Shown here: in pieces, positions 1 to 32,377 of the stretch
Position numbering within the stretch: the stretch's first letter is position 1
Layout of the letters: every line of letters starts with the position of its first letter
DNA from: Pseudomonas silesiensis
GTDB lineage: Bacteria > Pseudomonadota > Gammaproteobacteria > Pseudomonadales > Pseudomonadaceae
NCBI RefSeq assembly: GCF_001661075.1
Contig: NZ_CP014870.1
Span: 3,492,501-3,556,500, forward strand
Direction: 5' to 3'
Length of the DNA stretch: 64,000 bases
Program-made: the position numbers and the translations under genes
Notes under the pieces: model-generated
Database searches by the model: none
Seen by the model: the letters and a program-made list of their open reading frames with translations, nothing else
Told to the model about the DNA's origin: nothing

Positions 1-1134
1 TTTCCCCGCGATCATTTGATCCAGGGTCTGGAACTGGGTGCCGGTCCAGATCTCGCATTTGTTCTGGGTGATGCTGACCGTGCAGTTCAGCGGTTCCATC
101 GGCGCGTGGGCCAGGTAGGGCACGCTGTATTCGACGTCGAGGGTTTTCACCGCTTTGCCCAACGTGCCGTCGGTGTCGCCGGCCTTGCTGACTGAAACGC
201 CAGGGGTGGTGGCGAGTTTGCGGAAGTTTTCCAGCAATGCCTGACTGTCGAGCCCGCTGTTGGGCCCCGGATCCCAGTCGACGCTCAGGGCATCGCGTCC
301 CAGCTTGGCCGCCCAGTAGTGATCGGCGATCACCGCGACGCCCGTGGGCACCTGCAGGACCTTATGCACCCCCGGAATCGCCAGCGCTTCGGCGCCTTCG
401 AAGGATTTGACGCTGCCGCCGAACACCGGTGAACGGGCGACCATGGCGGTCATCAGGCCCTCGAACTGCACGTCCATGCCGAACTTGGCCTGGCCGGTTA
501 TTTTTTCCGGAGTGTCCAGGCGTTTGGTGGGTTTGCCGATGAGCTTCCAGTCCTTGGCTTCCTTGAGCTTGATCGAGGCCGGATCCGGCATCGGCAGCTT
601 GCCAGCATCATCGGCCAGCTCGCCGTAAGTGGCGCGCCGGTCACCGGCAATCACCACGCCCGATTCGGTGCGAATCCCGGATGGCGCAACGTTGAAGCGT
701 TTGGCGGCGGCCTCGATCAGCATCAACCGCGCCGTTGCGCCGGCCTGGCGGTAACGATCGAACTCCATCCAGGTCGAGGTGGAGCCGCCAGTGATCTGCA
801 TTCCGCCAAACCCGGCCAAGCCATAATCGGCGGCCGACGCGGGTGCATGTTCGACGCGAATTTTCGACCAGTCGGCGTCCAGTTCTTCGGCGATCAGCAT
901 GGTCAGGCCGGTCCAGATGCCCTGGCCCATCTCCGAATGGCCGAGCAGCACGGTGATGCTGTCGTCATTGCCGATTCGCACAAAGGCGTTGGGGGCGAAG
1001 ACCTTGCCCTGGTTCTCGGCGCCGCTGGCAAAGCGATGGGCACCGGGGATGACAAATGCCACCACCAGCCCCCCACCCAGCAACGCGCTGCCCTTGAGAA
1101 AACCCCGGCGCGATACCGGCTTGATGCTGTTCAT
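1..1134 (-). CDS. iorB: Molybdopterin-binding subunit of a xanthine dehydrogenase-family oxidoreductase (isoquinoline 1-oxidoreductase beta-like), partial
   Basis: Catalytic molybdenum subunit of a two-component hydroxylase; the family hydroxylates N-heterocycles or oxidises aldehydes. The first 378 codons are visible and the rest runs off the left edge. I translated it from the ATG at 1134. The N-terminus carries a twin-arginine signal (SRRGFLKG) followed by a hydrophobic stretch, so export as a folded cofactor-loaded enzyme is expected. A GHSEMGQGIWTGL segment is the molybdopterin-contacting motif typical of the family. It lies 25 nt downstream of the [2Fe-2S] subunit gene on the same strand, the usual iorA-iorB order. 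The substrate cannot be read from the sequence, and isoquinoline is only the name of the founding member. Confidence in family is high, in substrate low. Confidence 0.88.
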   Translation of the reverse strand, partial: MNSIKPVSRRGFLKGSALLGGGLVVAFVIPGAHRFASGAENQGKVFAPNAFVRIGNDDSITVLLGHSEMGQGIWTGLTMLIAEELDADWSKIRVEHAPASAADYGLAGFGGMQITGGSTSTWMEFDRYRQAGATARLMLIEAAAKRFNVAPSGIRTESGVVIAGDRRATYGELADDAGKLPMPDPASIKLKEAKDWKLIGKPTKRLDTPEKITGQAKFGMDVQFEGLMTAMVARSPVFGGSVKSFEGAEALAIPGVHKVLQVPTGVAVIADHYWAAKLGRDALSVDWDPGPNSGLDSQALLENFRKLATTPGVSVSKAGDTDGTLGKAVKTLDVEYSVPYLAHAPMEPLNCTVSITQNKCEIWTGTQFQTLDQMIAGK

Positions 1135-1159
1135 GGCTCAGGCTCCCGTCAACATGGCA

Positions 1160-1615
1160 TCAACCGATTTCGGCAGCGCGTTTGACTGCGGCACGGATTC
1201 TTGGATAGGTGCCGCAGCGGCAGATGTTGCCGGAAAGCGCCTGATCGATGTCGCTGTCAGTGGGTTGGGGAATTTTCGCCAGCAATGCGGCTGCCGACAT
1301 GATCTGCCCGGACTGGCAATAACCGCACTGGACCACATCGAGTTCGGCCCAGGCTCGTTGCACTGGGTGCGAGCCGTCGGTGGACAGGCCTTCGATGGTA
1401 AGAATTTTCTGCCCATGGGCCACGGTCGTGGCGGGCGTGACACAGGAGCGCAGCGGTGCACCGTCGACGTGCACGGTGCAGGCACCGCACTGGGCCATGC
1501 CACAACCGAATTTGGTACCGGTCAGGTGCGCGACATCGCGCAGCACCCAAAGCAGGGGCATGTCCGCCGGTACGTCCAGCGCCTGATCCTTGCCATTGAT
1601 GTTAAGCGTCAGCAT
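1160..1615 (-). CDS. iorA: [2Fe-2S]-binding subunit of molybdenum hydroxylase (isoquinoline 1-oxidoreductase alpha-like)
   Basis: Small electron-transfer subunit (151 aa) that pairs with the molybdopterin subunit just downstream. An N-terminal plant-ferredoxin-like domain has the cluster motif [12 protein letters not shown] plus a later Cys in RSC. The C-terminal helical domain has the second cluster motif QCGYCQSGQ and NICRCGTY. The length matches the family. The open frame extends upstream to 1726, but homologues begin near the ATG at 1615 (MLTLNINGK), and the extra 37 codons overlap a REP element, so I use the internal ATG. There is no signal peptide. Such subunits are normally carried through the Tat pathway with the catalytic partner. 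Confidence 0.9.
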
Positions 1616-1683
1616 GGCGAATGTCCTCAGACTCACGGTGTTCTGAAGGGGCTCTGTCTCTATGACGACGCCGTACGCTTTTC

Positions 1684-1776
1684 TGTAGGAGCGAAGCTTG
1701 CTCGCGAAGGCGTCAGAAATGCACACCGCGTTTTCGTTCTTCGTCGGGACGCCGTCCGGAGCAAGCTTCGCCCCTG
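1684..1776. repeat. Diverged REP inverted pair (REPIN)
   Basis: GTAGGAGCGAAGCTTGCTCG at the left end is mirrored, with several mismatches, by an arm ending near 1776. The second arm has decayed more than in the other pairs of this window. The rest of the 395-bp gap between the iorA start and the araC start holds no gene or clear operator that I can see. Confidence 0.75.
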
Positions 1777-2010
1777 CAAAGGTCGGTGGGCCTGCAGAAG
1801 CCTCGGTTTATCCCTACAGCTAAGCGCAATTTTCCCCGCGGGACTGGTTCATCGACCACCGGTCACTTGATGGTGCCACGGGCGGCCACCAACCGATGTT
1901 GTGCCAACAGCCGCATCACATGAAATAAATCTCGACATCGCTGCGCTGCAACGAGCCTTTGCCGGCGAGAGCTAATACACTGCGAAGCTGACCTGTCGAG
2001 GACGCTGACC

Positions 2011-2844
2011 TTGAAGCACTCCATCGCCAAAGACGCTGACAAGGCCCCGCGCTTCTGGCGTGATGACGCCCTGCCCTTCATCGAAGCCCGTTCCATCGCC
2101 GACGGCCGCGAAGTGTGCTACACCCGGCATGCCCACGAGCATTTTTCCATCGGGGCGATCACGGCCGGGCGCAGTACCTATATCCACGAGCAGTCGCACT
2201 TCCAGGTCGGTACCGGCACCGTGGTGCTGATGAATCCGGGCGATGTACACGCCTGCAATCCCATCGACAATCAGCCCTGGTCCTACTTGATGCTGTACGT
2301 CGACACGCCCTGGCTCACCGACTTGCAGCACCAGCTCGGGTTCAGCCACGACCTGGCGTTTCGGCGGTTTTCCATCACCCATAATCGCGACACCCTGCTG
2401 TTTGACGGCCTCAAGGCTTTATACGAAGTGCTGGTTGATCAGCAGCAGGAGGTACTGCATAAACACAGCGCGGCAGTGGAGTTTTTTTCCGAGGTGCAGC
2501 TGCGGCTCAATCCTGTCGACCCGCCGCTGCGCGAGCCCAATTTCAAGCTGGAACGGGCCGCCGACTACATCCGCGACAACTGCACGCAAATGCTCAAGCT
2601 CGAAGACATCTGCTTCGCGGCTCAATTGTCGCCGTCTTACCTGATTCGCGCGTTCAAGCAACAATACGGCATGACACCCCATGCGTTTCTCGTGAACCGG
2701 CGGATTCAGTTCGCTCAGGATCGGCTGCGCCGCGGCGAGCTGATCGCCGATGTCGCGCTGGAAGCGGGATTTGCCGATCAGGCGCATTTTCAACGGGCGT
2801 TCAAGCAGCACCTGGCGGCGACTCCGGGGCAGTATCGTGGCTGA
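2011..2844 (+). CDS. AraC-family transcriptional regulator with N-terminal cupin domain
   Basis: 277-aa regulator. Residues about 35-115 form an AraC-type cupin ligand-binding domain (HAHEHFSIGAI, VVLMNPGDVHACN). Residues about 175-277 form the double helix-turn-helix, ending in the typical AGFADQAHFQRAFKQHLAATPGQYR. The start is a TTG at 2011 with a GAGGA Shine-Dalgarno at 1999-2003; no in-frame ATG fits better. It faces a LysE-type exporter gene whose stop lies 18 nt beyond its own. AraC-cupin regulators next to LysE transporters usually respond to an amino acid or other small metabolite and control the exporter. That assignment is inference from context. Confidence 0.85.
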   Translation: MKHSIAKDADKAPRFWRDDALPFIEARSIADGREVCYTRHAHEHFSIGAITAGRSTYIHEQSHFQVGTGTVVLMNPGDVHACNPIDNQPWSYLMLYVDTPWLTDLQHQLGFSHDLAFRRFSITHNRDTLLFDGLKALYEVLVDQQQEVLHKHSAAVEFFSEVQLRLNPVDPPLREPNFKLERAADYIRDNCTQMLKLEDICFAAQLSPSYLIRAFKQQYGMTPHAFLVNRRIQFAQDRLRRGELIADVALEAGFADQAHFQRAFKQHLAATPGQYRG

Positions 2845-2862
2845 CTCGAATATCCCTGTGGA

Positions 2863-3459
2863 CTACTGTGGCGAGGGCAACACCAGATAAACCGCACTCA
2901 CCGCCAGCAACGACGCCATGATCCGGTTAAACCAACGCATACCCGCCGGATTATGCAAATAGCCGCGCAAAAAGGTCCCTGCATAAGCCCAGCAACCGAC
3001 GGACACATAGCAGATCACCAGGTACACCGCGGCAAACTGCCAGACCAGCCGCGCCTCGCCATCGGCGACAAACGCGCCCATGCCCGCTACGCAAGCCAGC
3101 CAGGCCTTCGGGTTGAGCCATTGCATGACAGCGCCGTAGAGCATTGACGGTGCGCGGCCCGGTGCCTTCGCTTCGAGATGGCCCTTGTCGACGGCGAGCT
3201 TGAACGCCATGTACAACAGGAACGCCACGCCTGCCCATTGCACCCCTTGCGTCAACGCCGGCCATCGCTGCAACAGCTCATGCAACCCCAATCCCATCAG
3301 TACCAGCAGTAACACAAAGCCGAGGGTCGCACCGGCCACATGCCGCTGACTGGCGCGAAAACCGAACCGCGCCCCCGAGCTCAACGCCACGATATTCACC
3401 GGCCCCGGCGTGATCGACGCTGCGAGGGCAAACGCCGCCATGGAAATAATCAGACTCAT
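2863..3459 (-). CDS. LysE family translocator
   Basis: 198-aa inner-membrane exporter of the LysE/RhtB superfamily, which exports amino acids or related metabolites. It has about six hydrophobic segments and the family signature near the N-terminus (ASITPGPVNIVALSSGARFG), then QWLNPKAWLACVAGMGAF in the middle. I chose the ATG at 3459 because GAAAGG lies just upstream and homologues begin MSLIISMAAF. The open frame continues to 3528 but without a good ribosome site. It converges with the araC gene and is divergent from a second LysE gene at 3628. The 168-bp space between the two exporters should hold both promoters. Confidence 0.85.
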   Translation of the reverse strand: MSLIISMAAFALAASITPGPVNIVALSSGARFGFRASQRHVAGATLGFVLLLVLMGLGLHELLQRWPALTQGVQWAGVAFLLYMAFKLAVDKGHLEAKAPGRAPSMLYGAVMQWLNPKAWLACVAGMGAFVADGEARLVWQFAAVYLVICYVSVGCWAYAGTFLRGYLHNPAGMRWFNRIMASLLAVSAVYLVLPSPQ

Positions 3460-3627
3460 CGCACCTTTCTTCCATTCAATTGAACAAGATCCCAAAGTAG
3501 AGAGCGGCGCGACGGCTGTATTGAACAAAACTCCCCTCGCCTGTACCGCGACAGACGCTCACCACTGTACGGGTCGAGCCTTCAACACCTGTGATAAAAA
3601 TATCGCACTAGTTTCAGGAGCCTCTTC

Positions 3628-4248
3628 ATGGACTTCGCCACCCTCTCCCTCTTCCTTCCCGCCTGCTTCGCCCTGAACATGGCGCCGGGCCCGAACAACC
3701 TGCTGTCGGTCAGTAATTCGACTCGCTACGGCTACCGCACGGCGTGCGTCGCCGGCATCGGCCGGCTGCTGGCGTTTGCCGGGATGATCGCCCTCGCGTC
3801 GGCGGGACTGGCGGTGGTGCTGCAAACCTCGGAGCTGCTGTTCTACGGGATCAAGATCCTCGGCGCGGCGTACCTGTTTTATCTTGCCTGGCAATTGTGG
3901 CGTGCCGATCCCGGGACACAAGACAGTGTCGCGGGAGCGCCCGTGGGCATGCTGAAATTGGCGCGGCAGGAGTTTCTGGTGGCGGCCGGCAACCCGAAAG
4001 CGATCCTGATCTTCACCGCGTTTCTGCCACAGTTCGTTGACCCGAGCCGGGCAATCACCCCGCAATTTGCCGTGTTGGGCGCCATGTTCCTGATGCTGGA
4101 ATGGATCGCGATCGGCGCCTACGCCTACATGGGCTTGCACATGCGCCGCTGGTTTGCCCAGCCTCGGGGCAAGCGGATATTCAACCGTTGCTGCGCCGGA
4201 TTGCTGTCGGCGGCGGCTTCGGTGTTGCTGCTGGCGCGGCGGGCCTGA
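3628..4248 (+). CDS. LysE/RhtB family translocator
   Basis: 206-aa inner-membrane transporter, a second superfamily member divergent from the first. It shows the signature NMAPGPNNLLSVSNSTRYG near residues 17-36, the central QEFLVAAGNPKAILIFTAFLPQFV, and six predicted membrane segments. A CAGGAG ribosome site precedes the ATG. The two neighbouring exporters share only the family signatures, so they look like separate acquisitions rather than a recent duplication. The substrate is unknown; homoserine/threonine-type export is the family norm. Confidence 0.85.
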   Translation: MDFATLSLFLPACFALNMAPGPNNLLSVSNSTRYGYRTACVAGIGRLLAFAGMIALASAGLAVVLQTSELLFYGIKILGAAYLFYLAWQLWRADPGTQDSVAGAPVGMLKLARQEFLVAAGNPKAILIFTAFLPQFVDPSRAITPQFAVLGAMFLMLEWIAIGAYAYMGLHMRRWFAQPRGKRIFNRCCAGLLSAAASVLLLARRA

Positions 4249-28957: not shown

Positions 28958-30232
28958 ATGGCCGATCTCTCGATTGTCTTCGCCGGCATCAAAGCCCCCA
29001 ACCCGTTCTGGCTGGCCTCCGCGCCACCGACCGACAAGGCCTACAACGTGGTCCGCGCCTTCGAGGCGGGTTGGGGCGGCGTGGTCTGGAAAACCCTGGG
29101 AGAAGACCCGGCGGCGGTCAACGTCTCGTCGCGCTACTCCGCGCATTTCGGGCCCAACCGTGAAGTAGTGGGCTTCAACAACATCGAACTGATCACCGAT
29201 CGGTCGTTGGAGATAAACCTGCGGGAAATCACCCAGGTCAAAAAAGACTGGCCGGACCGCGCGCTAATCGTCTCGTTGATGGTGCCCTGCGTGGAAGAGT
29301 CATGGAAATTCATCCTGCCGCTGGTGGAAGCCACCGGTGCCGACGGCATCGAGCTGAATTTCGGCTGCCCCCACGGCATGCCGGAACGGGGCATGGGCGC
29401 AGCGGTCGGCCAAGTGCCGGAGTATGTCGAGCAAGTCACCCGCTGGTGCAAGACGTATTGCTCGCTGCCAGTCATCGTCAAGCTCACGCCGAACATCACC
29501 GACATCCGCGTCGCCGCCCGCGCAGCCCATCGTGGCGGCGCCGATGCCGTATCGCTGATCAACACCATCAACTCGATCACCAGCGTCAACCTGGAACGCA
29601 TGGTCGCCAATCCCGCCGTCGGCAGCCAGAGCACCCACGGCGGTTATTGCGGGTCGGCGGTCAAGCCGATCGCGTTGAACATGGTCGCCGAAATCGCCCG
29701 CGACCCGCAGACCCAGGGCCTGCCGATTTGCGGCATCGGCGGGATTGGCAGCTGGCGCGACGCGGCGGAATTCATCGCCCTGGGCAGCGGCGCGGTGCAG
29801 GTGTGCACGGCGGCGATGCTGCATGGTTTCCGGATAGTCGACGAGATGAAGGATGGCTTGTCACGCTGGATGGACAGTCAGGGTTATGCCAGCGTCGCCG
29901 ATTTTTCAGGACGTGCGGTGGGCAACACCACGGACTGGAAGTATCTTGATATCAACTATCAGGTGATCGCGAAGATTGATCAGGAAGCCTGCATCGGCTG
30001 CGGTCGCTGTCATATCGCCTGCGAAGACACCTCGCACCAGGCGGTGGCCAGCCTCAAACAGGCGGACGGCACGCACAGGTATGAAGTGATCGATGAGGAG
30101 TGCGTGGGCTGCAACCTGTGCCAGATCACTTGTCCGGTGCAGGATTGCATCGAGATGGTACCGATGGAGAACGGCAAGCCGTTTCTGGATTGGGATCATG
30201 ATCCGAGGAATCCTTATCATGTTGCCGTTTAA
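28958..30232 (+). CDS. preA: NAD-dependent dihydropyrimidine dehydrogenase, PreA subunit
   Basis: 424-aa catalytic subunit. An FMN-binding dihydroorotate-dehydrogenase-like barrel fills about residues 1-330 (NPFWLASAPPTDK, LNFGCPHGMPERGMG, with the catalytic Cys in this segment). A ferredoxin domain at the end has two [4Fe-4S] motifs, CIGCGRCHIAC and CVGCNLCQITC. The ATG immediately follows the preT TAA, so translation is coupled. With hydA and pydC this completes uracil to beta-alanine. Confidence 0.95.
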   Translation: MADLSIVFAGIKAPNPFWLASAPPTDKAYNVVRAFEAGWGGVVWKTLGEDPAAVNVSSRYSAHFGPNREVVGFNNIELITDRSLEINLREITQVKKDWPDRALIVSLMVPCVEESWKFILPLVEATGADGIELNFGCPHGMPERGMGAAVGQVPEYVEQVTRWCKTYCSLPVIVKLTPNITDIRVAARAAHRGGADAVSLINTINSITSVNLERMVANPAVGSQSTHGGYCGSAVKPIALNMVAEIARDPQTQGLPICGIGGIGSWRDAAEFIALGSGAVQVCTAAMLHGFRIVDEMKDGLSRWMDSQGYASVADFSGRAVGNTTDWKYLDINYQVIAKIDQEACIGCGRCHIACEDTSHQAVASLKQADGTHRYEVIDEECVGCNLCQITCPVQDCIEMVPMENGKPFLDWDHDPRNPYHVAV

Positions 30233-30255
30233 GGCAGGCGCTGACTGAACTGACG

Positions 30256-30352
30256 CCTTCGCGGGCAAGCCTCGCTCCTACAGAGTTCTTTGGCGTACAC
30301 AGGATTTGTGTACGACATAAATCCCTGTAGGAGCGAGGCTTGCCCGCGAAGA
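30256..30352. repeat. REP inverted pair, tail to tail
   Basis: CTTCGCGGGCAAGCCTCGCT at the left is mirrored at the right, with about 40 bp between arms. It follows the preA stop and precedes the left copy of the 18-bp repeat that borders the Rhs gene. Confidence 0.85.
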
Positions 30353-30379
30353 GGCCAGCAGCCCCACCGAAATCCTCAA

Positions 30380-30397
30380 GGCTCCAACCCAATCCCC
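30380..30397. repeat. 18-bp direct repeat, left copy (relic of a tetR 3' end)
   Basis: GGCTCCAACCCAATCCCC is identical to 31616-31633. Read on the minus strand it encodes GIGLEP followed by a stop (TGA), just as the real tetR end does (TAG). The two copies bracket the Rhs gene. Copy divergence begins just outside, with at most one more match after a 1-base gap. Confidence 0.7.
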
Positions 30398-30495
30398 GCC
30401 CGACGTCCATCCAACCTATCAGTTCTGCTAGTAGACGACTCGCCCCATATCTCCGAAGCTGACACCCATCCAATTCGCCAGCGAAGGACCGCACC

Positions 30496-31554
30496 ATGTC
30501 AACCTCATCCTTGAAGATGCTGTGCCGCTATCAATACGACCCACTGGACCGTCTCACGGGCGTGGGGGTTCTGGAGGGAGCCCGCAACCAGCGCTTTTAC
30601 CAGGAGGACCATCTGACTACCAAACTGGGAGAGCAGACGCAACGAACCATCTTCCGCCATGAAGCCCAACCGCTGGCGCAGCTACACATCGCAGCCGGCG
30701 GCACCGAAACCACACTTCTAGCCACCGACCAAGCCGACTCGCTGCTGCAGGCGGTCCGGGGTACAAACCCGCAACAATTGGCCTACACCGCCTACGGCCA
30801 TCACCCGGCAGAAAGGGGTCTGAGCCGTTTGCTTGGGTTTAATGGTGAATGCCCCGACTCGATCACTGGGCACTATTTACTGGGCCAGGGCAAGCGGGCT
30901 TTTAATCCGGTTTTGATGCGTTTTAACAGTCCGGATGAGTTGAGCCCGTTTGGTGCAGGGGGGATAAATCCATATGCATATTGCGAGGGCGACCCCATCA
31001 ATTTTTCGGATCCATCCGGAAACGGAAAATTCAAAATAATATTAGATCTGGCTGAACGTACCGCTAGACGTACCAAATTAGCACTTACCAACACCCCACT
31101 AAATACAACACACCGCTCCTCCCACTCCATAGCCCGGGCCGCTCGCTCAGCATCAACGTCCAATCCAATTGTTGATACCGCTACTCCGATTGCCTCTCCT
31201 ATAAAAACTCAAAGATCAAAACTGCCGCCTGAAAAAAAGGCAAAAAGAACAAGAACAGAAGGAAATCCCGCACGAACTAAACACCAACAACAAGCATATG
31301 AAAAAGAAAGTAAATTAGCTGCCGACGCACGCAAATATGACGCACGTGAAGATAACCCAAGCAATTATGAAAATACGGAATTGCGAAATAAATTTGACGT
31401 ACTAAACCAAGAACTAAGTGATATCAGAGCGCGACGGGCTCCATATGAACAGGTCGAGATGGTACGCAAGCGCGCTGGTTATGCTCGAAGAATTGCCAAG
31501 CAAAGCGCTATTACAAGTATTGAGAATCAAGCCAAAACAATTAGAAACAAATAG
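30496..31554 (+). CDS. Orphan RHS repeat-associated core protein with variable C-terminal tail (candidate polymorphic toxin)
   Basis: 352 aa. Residues 1 to about 175 are the end of an Rhs barrel: YDPLDRLTG, then the core hallmark LGFNGECPDSITGHYLLGQG, RAFNPVLMRFNSPDELSPFG and INPYAYCEGDPINFSDPSG. After DPSG the sequence changes abruptly to an AT-rich, Lys/Arg/Glu-rich tail of about 175 residues that I cannot assign. This is the layout of polymorphic toxins. It lacks a signal peptide and the long Rhs repeat body. GAAGGA precedes the ATG. No immunity gene fits in the 57 nt before the convergent tetR stop. Secretion route and activity are unknown. Confidence 0.75.
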   Translation: MSTSSLKMLCRYQYDPLDRLTGVGVLEGARNQRFYQEDHLTTKLGEQTQRTIFRHEAQPLAQLHIAAGGTETTLLATDQADSLLQAVRGTNPQQLAYTAYGHHPAERGLSRLLGFNGECPDSITGHYLLGQGKRAFNPVLMRFNSPDELSPFGAGGINPYAYCEGDPINFSDPSGNGKFKIILDLAERTARRTKLALTNTPLNTTHRSSHSIARAARSASTSNPIVDTATPIASPIKTQRSKLPPEKKAKRTRTEGNPARTKHQQQAYEKESKLAADARKYDAREDNPSNYENTELRNKFDVLNQELSDIRARRAPYEQVEMVRKRAGYARRIAKQSAITSIENQAKTIRNK

Positions 31555-31611
31555 AGCAAAACTAACGTTGCTACAACTTCATACCCAAGCACCATAACTT
31601 CGGCGCGCAGA

Positions 31612-32232
31612 CTACGGCTCCAACCCAATCCCCCGCAATATCACACTGGTCACCGTCTGTACCGCCCGCTCGAACTGCATATCCGACAACGGCTGATGAT
31701 CATTGAGAATATTCACCTGATGATCAAAGTCAGCATAATGTTGAGTCGATGCCCAAATCATATAAAGCAGGCTCGAAGGCTCCACCGGCAAAATGCGTTT
31801 GTCCTCCACCCACTGGCGGATTTTCGCTTCTTTCATCTTGGCCCAGTCGTACAGGCTCGCATCCAGTTTCTCACCCAGGGTCGGCGCGCCGTGGATGATT
31901 TCGTTGGCCCAGACTTTTGACCCGTAAGGCCGGCTGCGGGAGTGGTTCATCTTGGCGCGGATGTAGCTGCTGAGTACCACCCGTGGGTCGTCGAACATCT
32001 CGAAGCACAGGGCGTCCTGTTTCCAGACTTCGAGCAGGTCGAAAAGCACGGCGCTGTACAGCTCGCTCTTGGTGCTGAAGTAGTAATGCAGGTTGGAACG
32101 CGGCAGCTGGACCTCGGCGGCGATGTCGGCCATGGCGGTGCTGCCGAAGCCTTTTTCGGCGAAGACCTTTTCGGCTCCCAGCAGAATTTTCTCGACGTTA
32201 CTGCGGCGGATTTCGATCTTGTGATTGCCCAT
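31612..32232 (-). CDS. rutR: TetR family regulator, RutR-like
   Basis: 206-aa repressor. The N-terminal TetR helix-turn-helix is AEKVFAEKGFGSTAMADIAA and QLPRSNLHYYFSTKSELYSAV. The C-terminal ligand domain is of the YcdC/RutR type (SYIRAKMNHSRSRPYGSKVWANE, IWASTQHYADFDHQVN). RutR binds uracil or thymine in E. coli and controls pyrimidine breakdown, so control of the divergent pyd genes is likely. The open frame extends to 32706 on the minus strand across copC, but the ATG at 32232 with GGGAG upstream is the true start. Its last 18 coding bases match a repeat copy at 30380. Confidence 0.85.
   Translation of the reverse strand: MGNHKIEIRRSNVEKILLGAEKVFAEKGFGSTAMADIAAEVQLPRSNLHYYFSTKSELYSAVLFDLLEVWKQDALCFEMFDDPRVVLSSYIRAKMNHSRSRPYGSKVWANEIIHGAPTLGEKLDASLYDWAKMKEAKIRQWVEDKRILPVEPSSLLYMIWASTQHYADFDHQVNILNDHQPLSDMQFERAVQTVTSVILRGIGLEP
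31616..31633. repeat. 18-bp direct repeat, right copy (within tetR 3' end)
   Basis: Identical to 30380-30397. It is the coding sequence for the last residues (GIGLEP) of the TetR regulator, an attachment-site-like position at a gene end. Confidence 0.7.
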
Positions 32233-32377
32233 GAGGGCTCCCTGACACCAGCGTTGCTCAAGACTAGCATCCGCTCTACTTCGGGGCGACAGGGGAAAAC
32301 GAATCTTCCTACGCCCGGTTTCATGCTCATGCAGGTAAACTGCCCGCCTCTTCGAACCTGCCTCTGAGGTATCCACG

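What the first reader, a model, noticed from the sequence alone, without database searches (positions are those of the whole stretch)
30380..31633. Orphan Rhs gene bounded by an 18-bp direct repeat derived from the tetR 3' end
GGCTCCAACCCAATCCCC occurs at 30380 and at 31616. The right copy codes for the last residues of TetR; the left copy still reads GIGLEP-stop on the minus strand. The enclosed 1.2 kb holds only the Rhs gene. This looks like insertion of a toxin module at a gene end with regeneration of the target, like an attachment site but without an integrase.
Basis: seen in the sequence. Interest (0 to 1): 0.72.

Follow-up and report, generated by a model that had tools for sequence, protein, structure and literature searches.

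The report
Small Rhs gene inserted beside tetR
A small toxin-like Rhs gene, one of a scattered family in this Pseudomonas that shares a quorum-sensing-type promoter site, landed at the end of a neighbouring gene and left a duplicated scrap of that gene's end behind.

Summary
The 18-bp direct repeat is real, but it is no attachment core. It is the remaining scrap of a longer duplication of the tetR 3' end (31 bp in G088, about 42 bp in P. fluorescens PS723). All 25 empty relatives examined have one copy, and the left copy continues into the native preA-tetR junction: the geometry of an insertion that duplicated its target. Five Rhs copies from this site form one clade, so the insertion is old.

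The pattern recurs. Small Rhs genes at about nine other gene ends have such duplications, 33 to about 315 bp; at two of them relatives show the native ends.

A lux-box-type dyad (CT-N12-AG) lies about 80 bp before the start of all 14 small Rhs genes of this genome, and a whole-genome search with up to 3 mismatches found it nowhere else. In relatives it also precedes a few non-Rhs genes. This is probably a dispersed regulon of single-gene effectors under a LuxR-type regulator. Regulator, delivery and insertion mechanism are inferred.

The parts
28958..30232 (+). preA, left neighbour
   Evidence: NF006183 PreA, 704.8 bits, cut-off 335
30250..30358 (.). REP-like inverted repeat (arms 52 nt, 85% complementary); the name REP is recalled
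   Evidence: pair I1
30380..30397 (-). left copy of the 18-mer: relic of the native tetR 3' end
   Evidence: longer relic in L032 and L278
30414..30433 (+). lux-box-type dyad ACCTATCAGTTCTGCTAGTA, 80 bp before the start codon (CT to ATG)
30496..31554 (+). small Rhs gene, 352 aa: conserved N-terminal part with Rhs-associated core, variable C-terminal part
31616..31633 (-). right copy of the 18-mer: working end of tetR
31612..32235 (-). TetR family regulator gene (TetR_N and TetR_C_3; related to RutR but below that family's cut-off)

Best explanation
The gene belongs to a dispersed family of small Rhs genes, each made of a lux-box-type promoter dyad, a leader of about 80 bp, a conserved N-terminal part with the Rhs core, and a variable C-terminal part. 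An ancestral insertion put such a gene into the tetR 3' end of a lineage of the P. fluorescens group and duplicated at least 31-42 bp of that end. The copy on tetR stayed in use; the copy on the preA side became a relic that is eroded to 18 bp here and to nothing in some species. The gene is most likely transcribed under a LuxR-type regulator and makes an effector without a linked immunity gene. Shown: the repeat, single-copy empty sites, native left junction, one clade at this site, recurrent gene-end duplications, exclusive linkage of the dyad to the 14 small Rhs genes of this genome, purifying selection on the N-terminal part. Inferred: control by a LuxR-type protein, effector function, and the way of insertion (repair- or recombination-borne capture that duplicates the target, without a recombinase of its own).
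For: 25 of 25 empty relatives have one copy. 20 of these 25 read TCAAGG or TCAGGG at the junction, as the left copy does (CTCAAGG); the right copy follows CTACGG, as in 9 of 11 occupied genomes and in none of the 25 empty ones. Longer relics in L032 and L278. Five tetR-site Rhs copies form one clade, 100/97. Gene-end duplications at other sites, two with native ends known. 14 of 14 small Rhs genes have the dyad and it is found at no other place within 3 mismatches. Median dN/dS 0.144, 17 of 21 pairs.
Against: Left copy not recognisable in 5 of 11 occupied genomes. The tetR gene tree does not group the occupied loci: 4 changes, 106 of 500 shuffles as low. No flank duplication found at L003, L007, L008, L009, L013 of this genome. 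At 3 mismatches the reversed dyad pattern gives 17 hits in the genome, so only placement and the stricter search count. No regulator is shown to bind.
Confidence: 0.65

Rival explanations
1. The gene came on DNA of a relative that already had Rhs beside the same gene end and was taken up by homologous recombination, for instance one crossover of a circle. The repeats are then stretches of homology, not a target duplication made on insertion.
For: The repeats have variable length and identity from 72 to 100%; the same gene ends, tetR and an fdhA-like gene, are occupied in several species.
Against: It needs a first insertion at the same site elsewhere. At the lysR-like gene the relic keeps an end like that of the nearest relative G021 and the working gene has a new end that none of 29 relatives shows, so no donor end is seen.
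Confidence: 0.25
2. Tandem duplication of Rhs plus the neighbouring gene end, followed by loss of one Rhs copy, left the relic.
For: Such tandems exist: an fdhA-like end between two Rhs genes in G000, a TetR-like end between two in G094, a 201-bp preA fragment between two in P. lini.
Against: At the tetR site the relic is joined to the native intergenic sequence, not to an Rhs end.
Confidence: 0.1
3. The Rhs gene is the remnant of a genomic island that a site-specific integrase put into the gene end.
For: Islands use gene ends and restore them (recalled).
Against: Only one clear gene lies between the copies; the host genes and repeats differ at each site.
Confidence: 0.06
4. On function: the small genes are silent cassettes that lend C-terminal parts to full-length Rhs or Tc proteins by recombination.
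For: Standalone toxin cassettes are described for polymorphic toxins (PMC3482391, passages). Full-length frames of about 1600 aa with the same core exist in the genus. C-terminal parts at the one tetR site differ strongly.
Against: Own dyad at a near-constant distance, own start codon, N-terminal part under purifying selection. The dyad also serves a few non-Rhs genes.
Confidence: 0.25
5. The 18-mer is a chance match.
For: Short, and two of 13 control pairs reach the same score.
Against: Exact match at both insert borders, longer relics in relatives, single copies in empty sites.
Confidence: 0.02

Closest known systems
Orphan rhs-CT modules of enterobacteria, such as Salmonella LT2 (PMC3967940, passages seen)
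   Same: Short Rhs pieces with some conserved N-terminal sequence and a variable C-terminal part.
   Different: Those lie behind a main rhs gene, are linked to an immunity gene and usually lack initiation signals. Here the genes are scattered, have their own dyad and start codon, and no gene fits between this Rhs gene and tetR.
TcC proteins and orphan TcC of Tc toxins (PMC7861908, passages seen)
   Same: Rhs core followed by a hypervariable C-terminal part, away from TcA/TcB.
   Different: Orphan TcC were defined at 851-1050 aa; here 322-381 aa in this genome, too short for the Rhs shell. TcB is found in only 3 of the 8 dyad genomes.
Lux boxes and LuxR solo regulons (PMC4338825 and PMC8546723, passages seen)
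   Same: Palindrome of 20 bp with CT(N12)AG in promoters.
   Different: No binding data. The target set, scattered Rhs genes, was not found in print in the searches made.
Islands integrated at gene 3' ends (recalled)
   Same: Gene end restored, displaced copy at the far border.
   Different: No integrase; another host gene and repeat at each site; lengths from tens to hundreds of bp.

Membership tests
Rhs / YD-repeat proteins | Rhs-associated core domain over the curated cut-off | tested here: met
   TIGR03696, 70 bits, cut-off 32.5
Rhs / YD-repeat proteins | Long repeat array forming the shell | tested here: not met
   352 aa, no Pfam match at 0.001
Orphan rhs-CT toxin/immunity modules | Linked immunity gene | tested here: not met
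   61 bp between the Rhs stop and the right 18-mer copy at the tetR end
TcC subunits of Tc toxins | Size of 851-1050 aa | tested here: not met
   352 aa; criterion from PMC7861908
Site-specific integrative element | Integrase gene inside | tested here: not met
   One clear gene between the copies, the Rhs gene
Site-specific integrative element | Same attachment core at each site | tested here: not met
   Different gene ends and repeats
Transposon with fixed target duplication | Same duplication length at each site | tested here: not met
   33, 49, 53, 66, 74, 144 and about 315 bp
Gene-end insertion with target duplication (geometry only) | One copy in empty sites, two around the insert | tested here: met
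   25 of 25 empty loci have one copy. Two copies in 6 of 11 occupied genomes; in 5 the left one is gone.
lux box | CT(N12)AG in a palindrome of about 20 bp upstream of a gene | tested here: met
   definition from PMC4338825
lux box | Bound by a LuxR-type protein | not testable with these tools
   One Autoind_bind protein in the genome is a candidate

The most novel reading that the evidence does not exclude
Pseudomonas of the P. fluorescens group keep a dispersed arsenal of single-gene, shell-less Rhs effectors under one LuxR-type regulator. The genes reach new gene ends by a recombinase-free process that duplicates the end, sometimes with the terminator, of the host gene, so that each new copy arrives with its own promoter, leaves the host gene working and may gain a terminator.
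Probability: 0.3. Interest if true: 0.8.

Novelty: new variant of a known kind. Interest (0 to 1): 0.6.

Why it matters
Orphan Rhs pieces are mostly seen as silent leftovers bound to an rhs locus. Here they share a promoter dyad and spacing, the N-terminal part at one site is under purifying selection, and they are scattered over the chromosome, so they look like a working regulon. The dyad gives a direct handle: one binding or reporter test would tell whether quorum-type signalling switches on many effectors at once. The gene-end duplications give a second handle, on how single genes without mobility functions reach new sites.

Tried and rejected
Attachment-core reading: dropped, because relics in relatives are longer and each site has its own repeat. 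The dyad as the left end of a mobile element: L002 and L004 share sequence from the dyad onward and differ before it, but the dyad also precedes non-Rhs genes, so I read it as a promoter element. Dependence on Tc toxins: PF12256 in 3 of the 8 dyad genomes, so no requirement. The subgroup-A-type LuxR solo as the regulator: not established; relatives of it occur with and without the dyad, and the G088 copy is listed in two frames. A constant duplication length near 70 bp: considered after 74 and 66 bp, dropped because of the other lengths. Known toxin domain at the C-terminus: no Pfam match for the window protein; nine other proteins of this genome gave only matches below the curated cut-offs.

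Print: searches listed no paper that I recognised as describing this dyad with Rhs genes; only titles and abstract starts were seen, plus passages of PMC7048289, PMC8546723, PMC7861908, PMC5006985, PMC3482391, PMC4338825, PMC3967940 and PMC2703642. Papers outside the held library were not searched.

Names of host genes such as lysR-like, YCII-like, cbpM-like, FKBP-type isomerase, fdhA-like, ferredoxin-NADP reductase, pdxB and the name REP are read from the sequence or recalled; no family search was run on them.

Full report
OBSERVATION. The 18-mer lies at 30380-30397 and 31616-31633 and at no other place in the window within 3 mismatches. Between the copies lies one clear gene, 30496-31554, 352 aa, with the Rhs-associated core at residues 97-175 and no Pfam match at 0.001. 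Left of it is preA, right of it a TetR family gene on the minus strand whose last codons are the right copy. 61 bp separate the Rhs stop from the right copy, so no immunity gene fits there.

EMPTY SITES. The tetR gene was searched in 119 Pseudomonas genomes; 109 had a match of any strength, and the 30 best loci were fetched, the own locus included. Of these 29 relatives, 4 carry Rhs at the same place (G038, G088, G039, G107) and 25 do not. All 25 have exactly one copy of the 18-mer within 5 mismatches in the stretch before tetR; in one of them preA is off the contig. 20 of the 25 read TCAAGG or TCAGGG at the junction, 2 read TCACGG, 3 differ otherwise. The left copy in the window reads CTCAAGG and follows REP-like sequence; the right copy follows CTACGG, which is seen in 9 of 11 occupied genomes and in none of the 25 empty ones. 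So the left copy keeps the native junction, and the insert lies inside a duplication.

LENGTH OF THE DUPLICATION. G088 (L032) keeps 31 bp, 29 identical. P. fluorescens PS723 (L278) keeps TCAAGG to GGTCAC, about 42 bp with one short gap; beyond that the alignment is unsure. In the window itself the alignment beyond the 18 bp does not exceed the best of 300 shuffles. A scan of named genomes with the Rhs protein gave 23 loci, 8 of them at this tetR site: P. fluorescens PS862, PS833 and PS723, P. lini CC269, Irchel s3h17, P. mandelii RIT-562, P. violetae TNT19 and Irchel 3A7. P. violetae has the contig length of the G038 contig, and Irchel 3A7 agrees with G088 in the stretches compared, so I count each pair once: 11 distinct occupied genomes. 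The left copy is recognisable (2 mismatches or fewer) in 6: the window genome, G088, PS862, PS833, P. lini (first of two), PS723. It is not in 5: G038, G039, G107, Irchel s3h17, P. mandelii.

HISTORY AT THIS SITE. In a tree of 73 Rhs core segments the five tetR-site copies included (G000, G038, G088, G039, G107) form one group, 100/97; the later named loci were not in that tree. The tetR tree scatters the occupied loci: 4 changes, 106 of 500 shuffles as low, weak support; one gain with losses, or exchange of the locus, both fit. C-terminal parts at this site range from 71% identical (PS862 and the second P. lini copy) to no BLASTP hit at E 1; 10 of 12 loci gave a sequence for this. The N-terminal part is under purifying selection: median dN/dS 0.144 over 17 of 21 pairs, 4 being undefined; 7 sequences from 6 of the 11 loci given. 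P. lini has a tandem: preA, relic, dyad, Rhs, a 201-bp preA fragment 86.5% like its own preA, relic, dyad, Rhs, tetR.

THE SAME PATTERN ELSEWHERE. The genome (6.82 Mb, one contig) has 14 matches to the Rhs protein, each a small gene. Flank comparison there gave: tetR 18 bp (score 18; two of 13 control pairs also 18), lysR-like 66 bp (41; best control 12.5), FKBP-like 53 bp (43; 14), YCII-like 33 bp (20.5; 13; a paralogue is not excluded), cbpM-like 52 bp (17; 14; weak), and an fdhA-like 125 bp at the tandem L005-L006. L002 matched REP-like sequence, L004 a transposase-like repeat, L005 its tandem neighbour. L003, L007, L008, L009 and L013 gave nothing. Over 53 sites in the fetched loci 15 score 17 or more, against 2.7% of 2730 mismatched pairs. 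Nine of the 15 are gene-end duplications (L001, L006, L010, L011, L012, L032, L170, L200, L202); six are REP-like, transposase-like or Rhs-tandem repeats (L002, L004, L005, L183, L193, L206). 38 of 53 show none. A second scan of 74 sites, some of them reverse readings of the dyad, added 144 bp in G079, 49 bp in G088 and fdhA-like relics in G094 and G106; its mismatched pairs had 18.8 as 98th percentile, so the 18 bp of the window do not stand out there either. In L006, L170 and L173 the relic lies between tandem Rhs genes, where tandem duplication explains it as well.

WHICH COPY IS NATIVE. At the lysR-like gene 29 relatives were compared. The closest, G021, ends LLTRKVEPLKP, as the relic beyond the Rhs gene does; the working gene here ends LLTYKAESIG, which none of the 29 has. 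Over the 66 bp itself the working copy is nearer to G021 than the relic (0.92 against 0.86), as expected if the relic decays. In G038 the last codons and terminator of a short gene before pdxB are duplicated over 74 bp without a difference; the left copy continues from the gene, the right one into the REP-like and pdxB side. Of 29 relatives, 9 have one match over 53 bp or more of the 74, 7 have shorter matches (one of them, L256, two overlapping parts of the repeat) and 13 none at that threshold. With tetR these are the three sites that speak for duplication of the target; lengths differ, so an ordinary transposase is not indicated.

THE PROMOTER DYAD. CCTAGCAGTTCTGCTAGT with up to 3 mismatches occurs at 14 places in the genome, each before one of the 14 small Rhs genes. 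The reversed-pattern control gave 17 hits at that looseness, so the count alone is no evidence; the placement is. With CTANCAGWTCTGMTAG and no mismatch this genome has 13 sites and the control none; 8 of 119 genomes have any, 2 to 13 sites each, and the control had one hit in all. Of 55 strand-specific readings in the loci at hand 45 have an Rhs frame downstream on the same strand, 42 of them 54-128 bp away. The 10 others are 6 sites without Rhs and 4 reverse readings of a dyad. The 6 sites lead to a 473-aa protein in G079 and in G006, a divergent 330-aa protein in G006 (start read from the frame, its end cut by the contig), an 875-aa protein with fibronectin III domains and a divergent 148-aa protein in G107; at the G038 and G002 sites no clear gene was seen. 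Genomes without the exact pattern have variants such as CTAGCAGTTTTGCTAG or CTGATAGTTCTGTCAG. In 76 boxes, collected with CT and AG required, the inner positions are conserved too and 64 lie 400-429 bp before the core. CT(N12)AG is called typical of lux boxes, which are 20-bp palindromes (PMC4338825, passages).

REGULATOR. This genome has one Autoind_bind protein, 244 aa, beside a gene that I read as ferredoxin-NADP reductase, one of the two neighbours described for subgroup A LuxR solos (PMC8546723, passages). 116 of 119 genomes have some relative of it; in G018, G022, G026, G056, G066 and G094, which have small Rhs genes, only distant or partial matches are listed. It is a candidate, no more.

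COMPARISON. Orphan rhs genes of Salmonella lie behind a main rhs gene, are linked to immunity genes and usually lack initiation signals (PMC3967940, passages). Orphan TcC were defined at 851-1050 aa (PMC7861908, passages). The genes here share the core and differ in size, promoter, dispersal and, for the window gene, the missing immunity gene. TcB (PF12256) is found in 49 of 119 genomes and in 3 of the 8 dyad genomes.

VERDICT. Observation confirmed; interpretation partly supported. Insertion with duplication of the target is well supported here and at two other sites. The lux-type regulon is the more interesting part and rests on sequence alone.

Noticed in passing
window 30414-30433; 14 places in G000: Lux-box-type dyad before all 14 small Rhs genes and at no other place of the genome within 3 mismatches.
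   Followed up: partly
L159 (G107:C23), around 2741: The dyad stands between an 875-aa protein with fibronectin III domains and a divergent 148-aa protein; no Rhs.
   Followed up: partly
L195 (G006:C153), around 1090-1126; L150 (G079:C105), 1290: Two divergent dyads before a 473-aa and a 330-aa protein without Pfam match; the 473-aa protein recurs in G079 behind a dyad.
   Followed up: partly
L274 (P. lini CC269), 594-4133: Tandem of two units of relic, dyad and Rhs with a 201-bp preA fragment between them.
   Followed up: yes
L006, L202, L173, L181: The end of an fdhA-like gene carries small Rhs genes and relics in G000, G038, G094 and G106, so it is a recurrent site like tetR; in G000 both pieces look like fragments.
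   Followed up: partly
L002-L004-L007 (G000:C1:4897900-4904100): Three Rhs genes in a row with a repeated transposase-like gene between them (the RAYT label is recalled).
   Followed up: no
L012, L013, L200, L160: A subgroup with a shorter N-terminal part (dyad to core about 260 bp in L012, L013 and L200) groups apart in the core tree, 100/100; L200 has the exact 74-bp duplication.
   Followed up: partly
G088:C21:117465-118185: The LuxR-type relative is listed in two frames in G088, which keeps 8 dyad sites.
   Followed up: no
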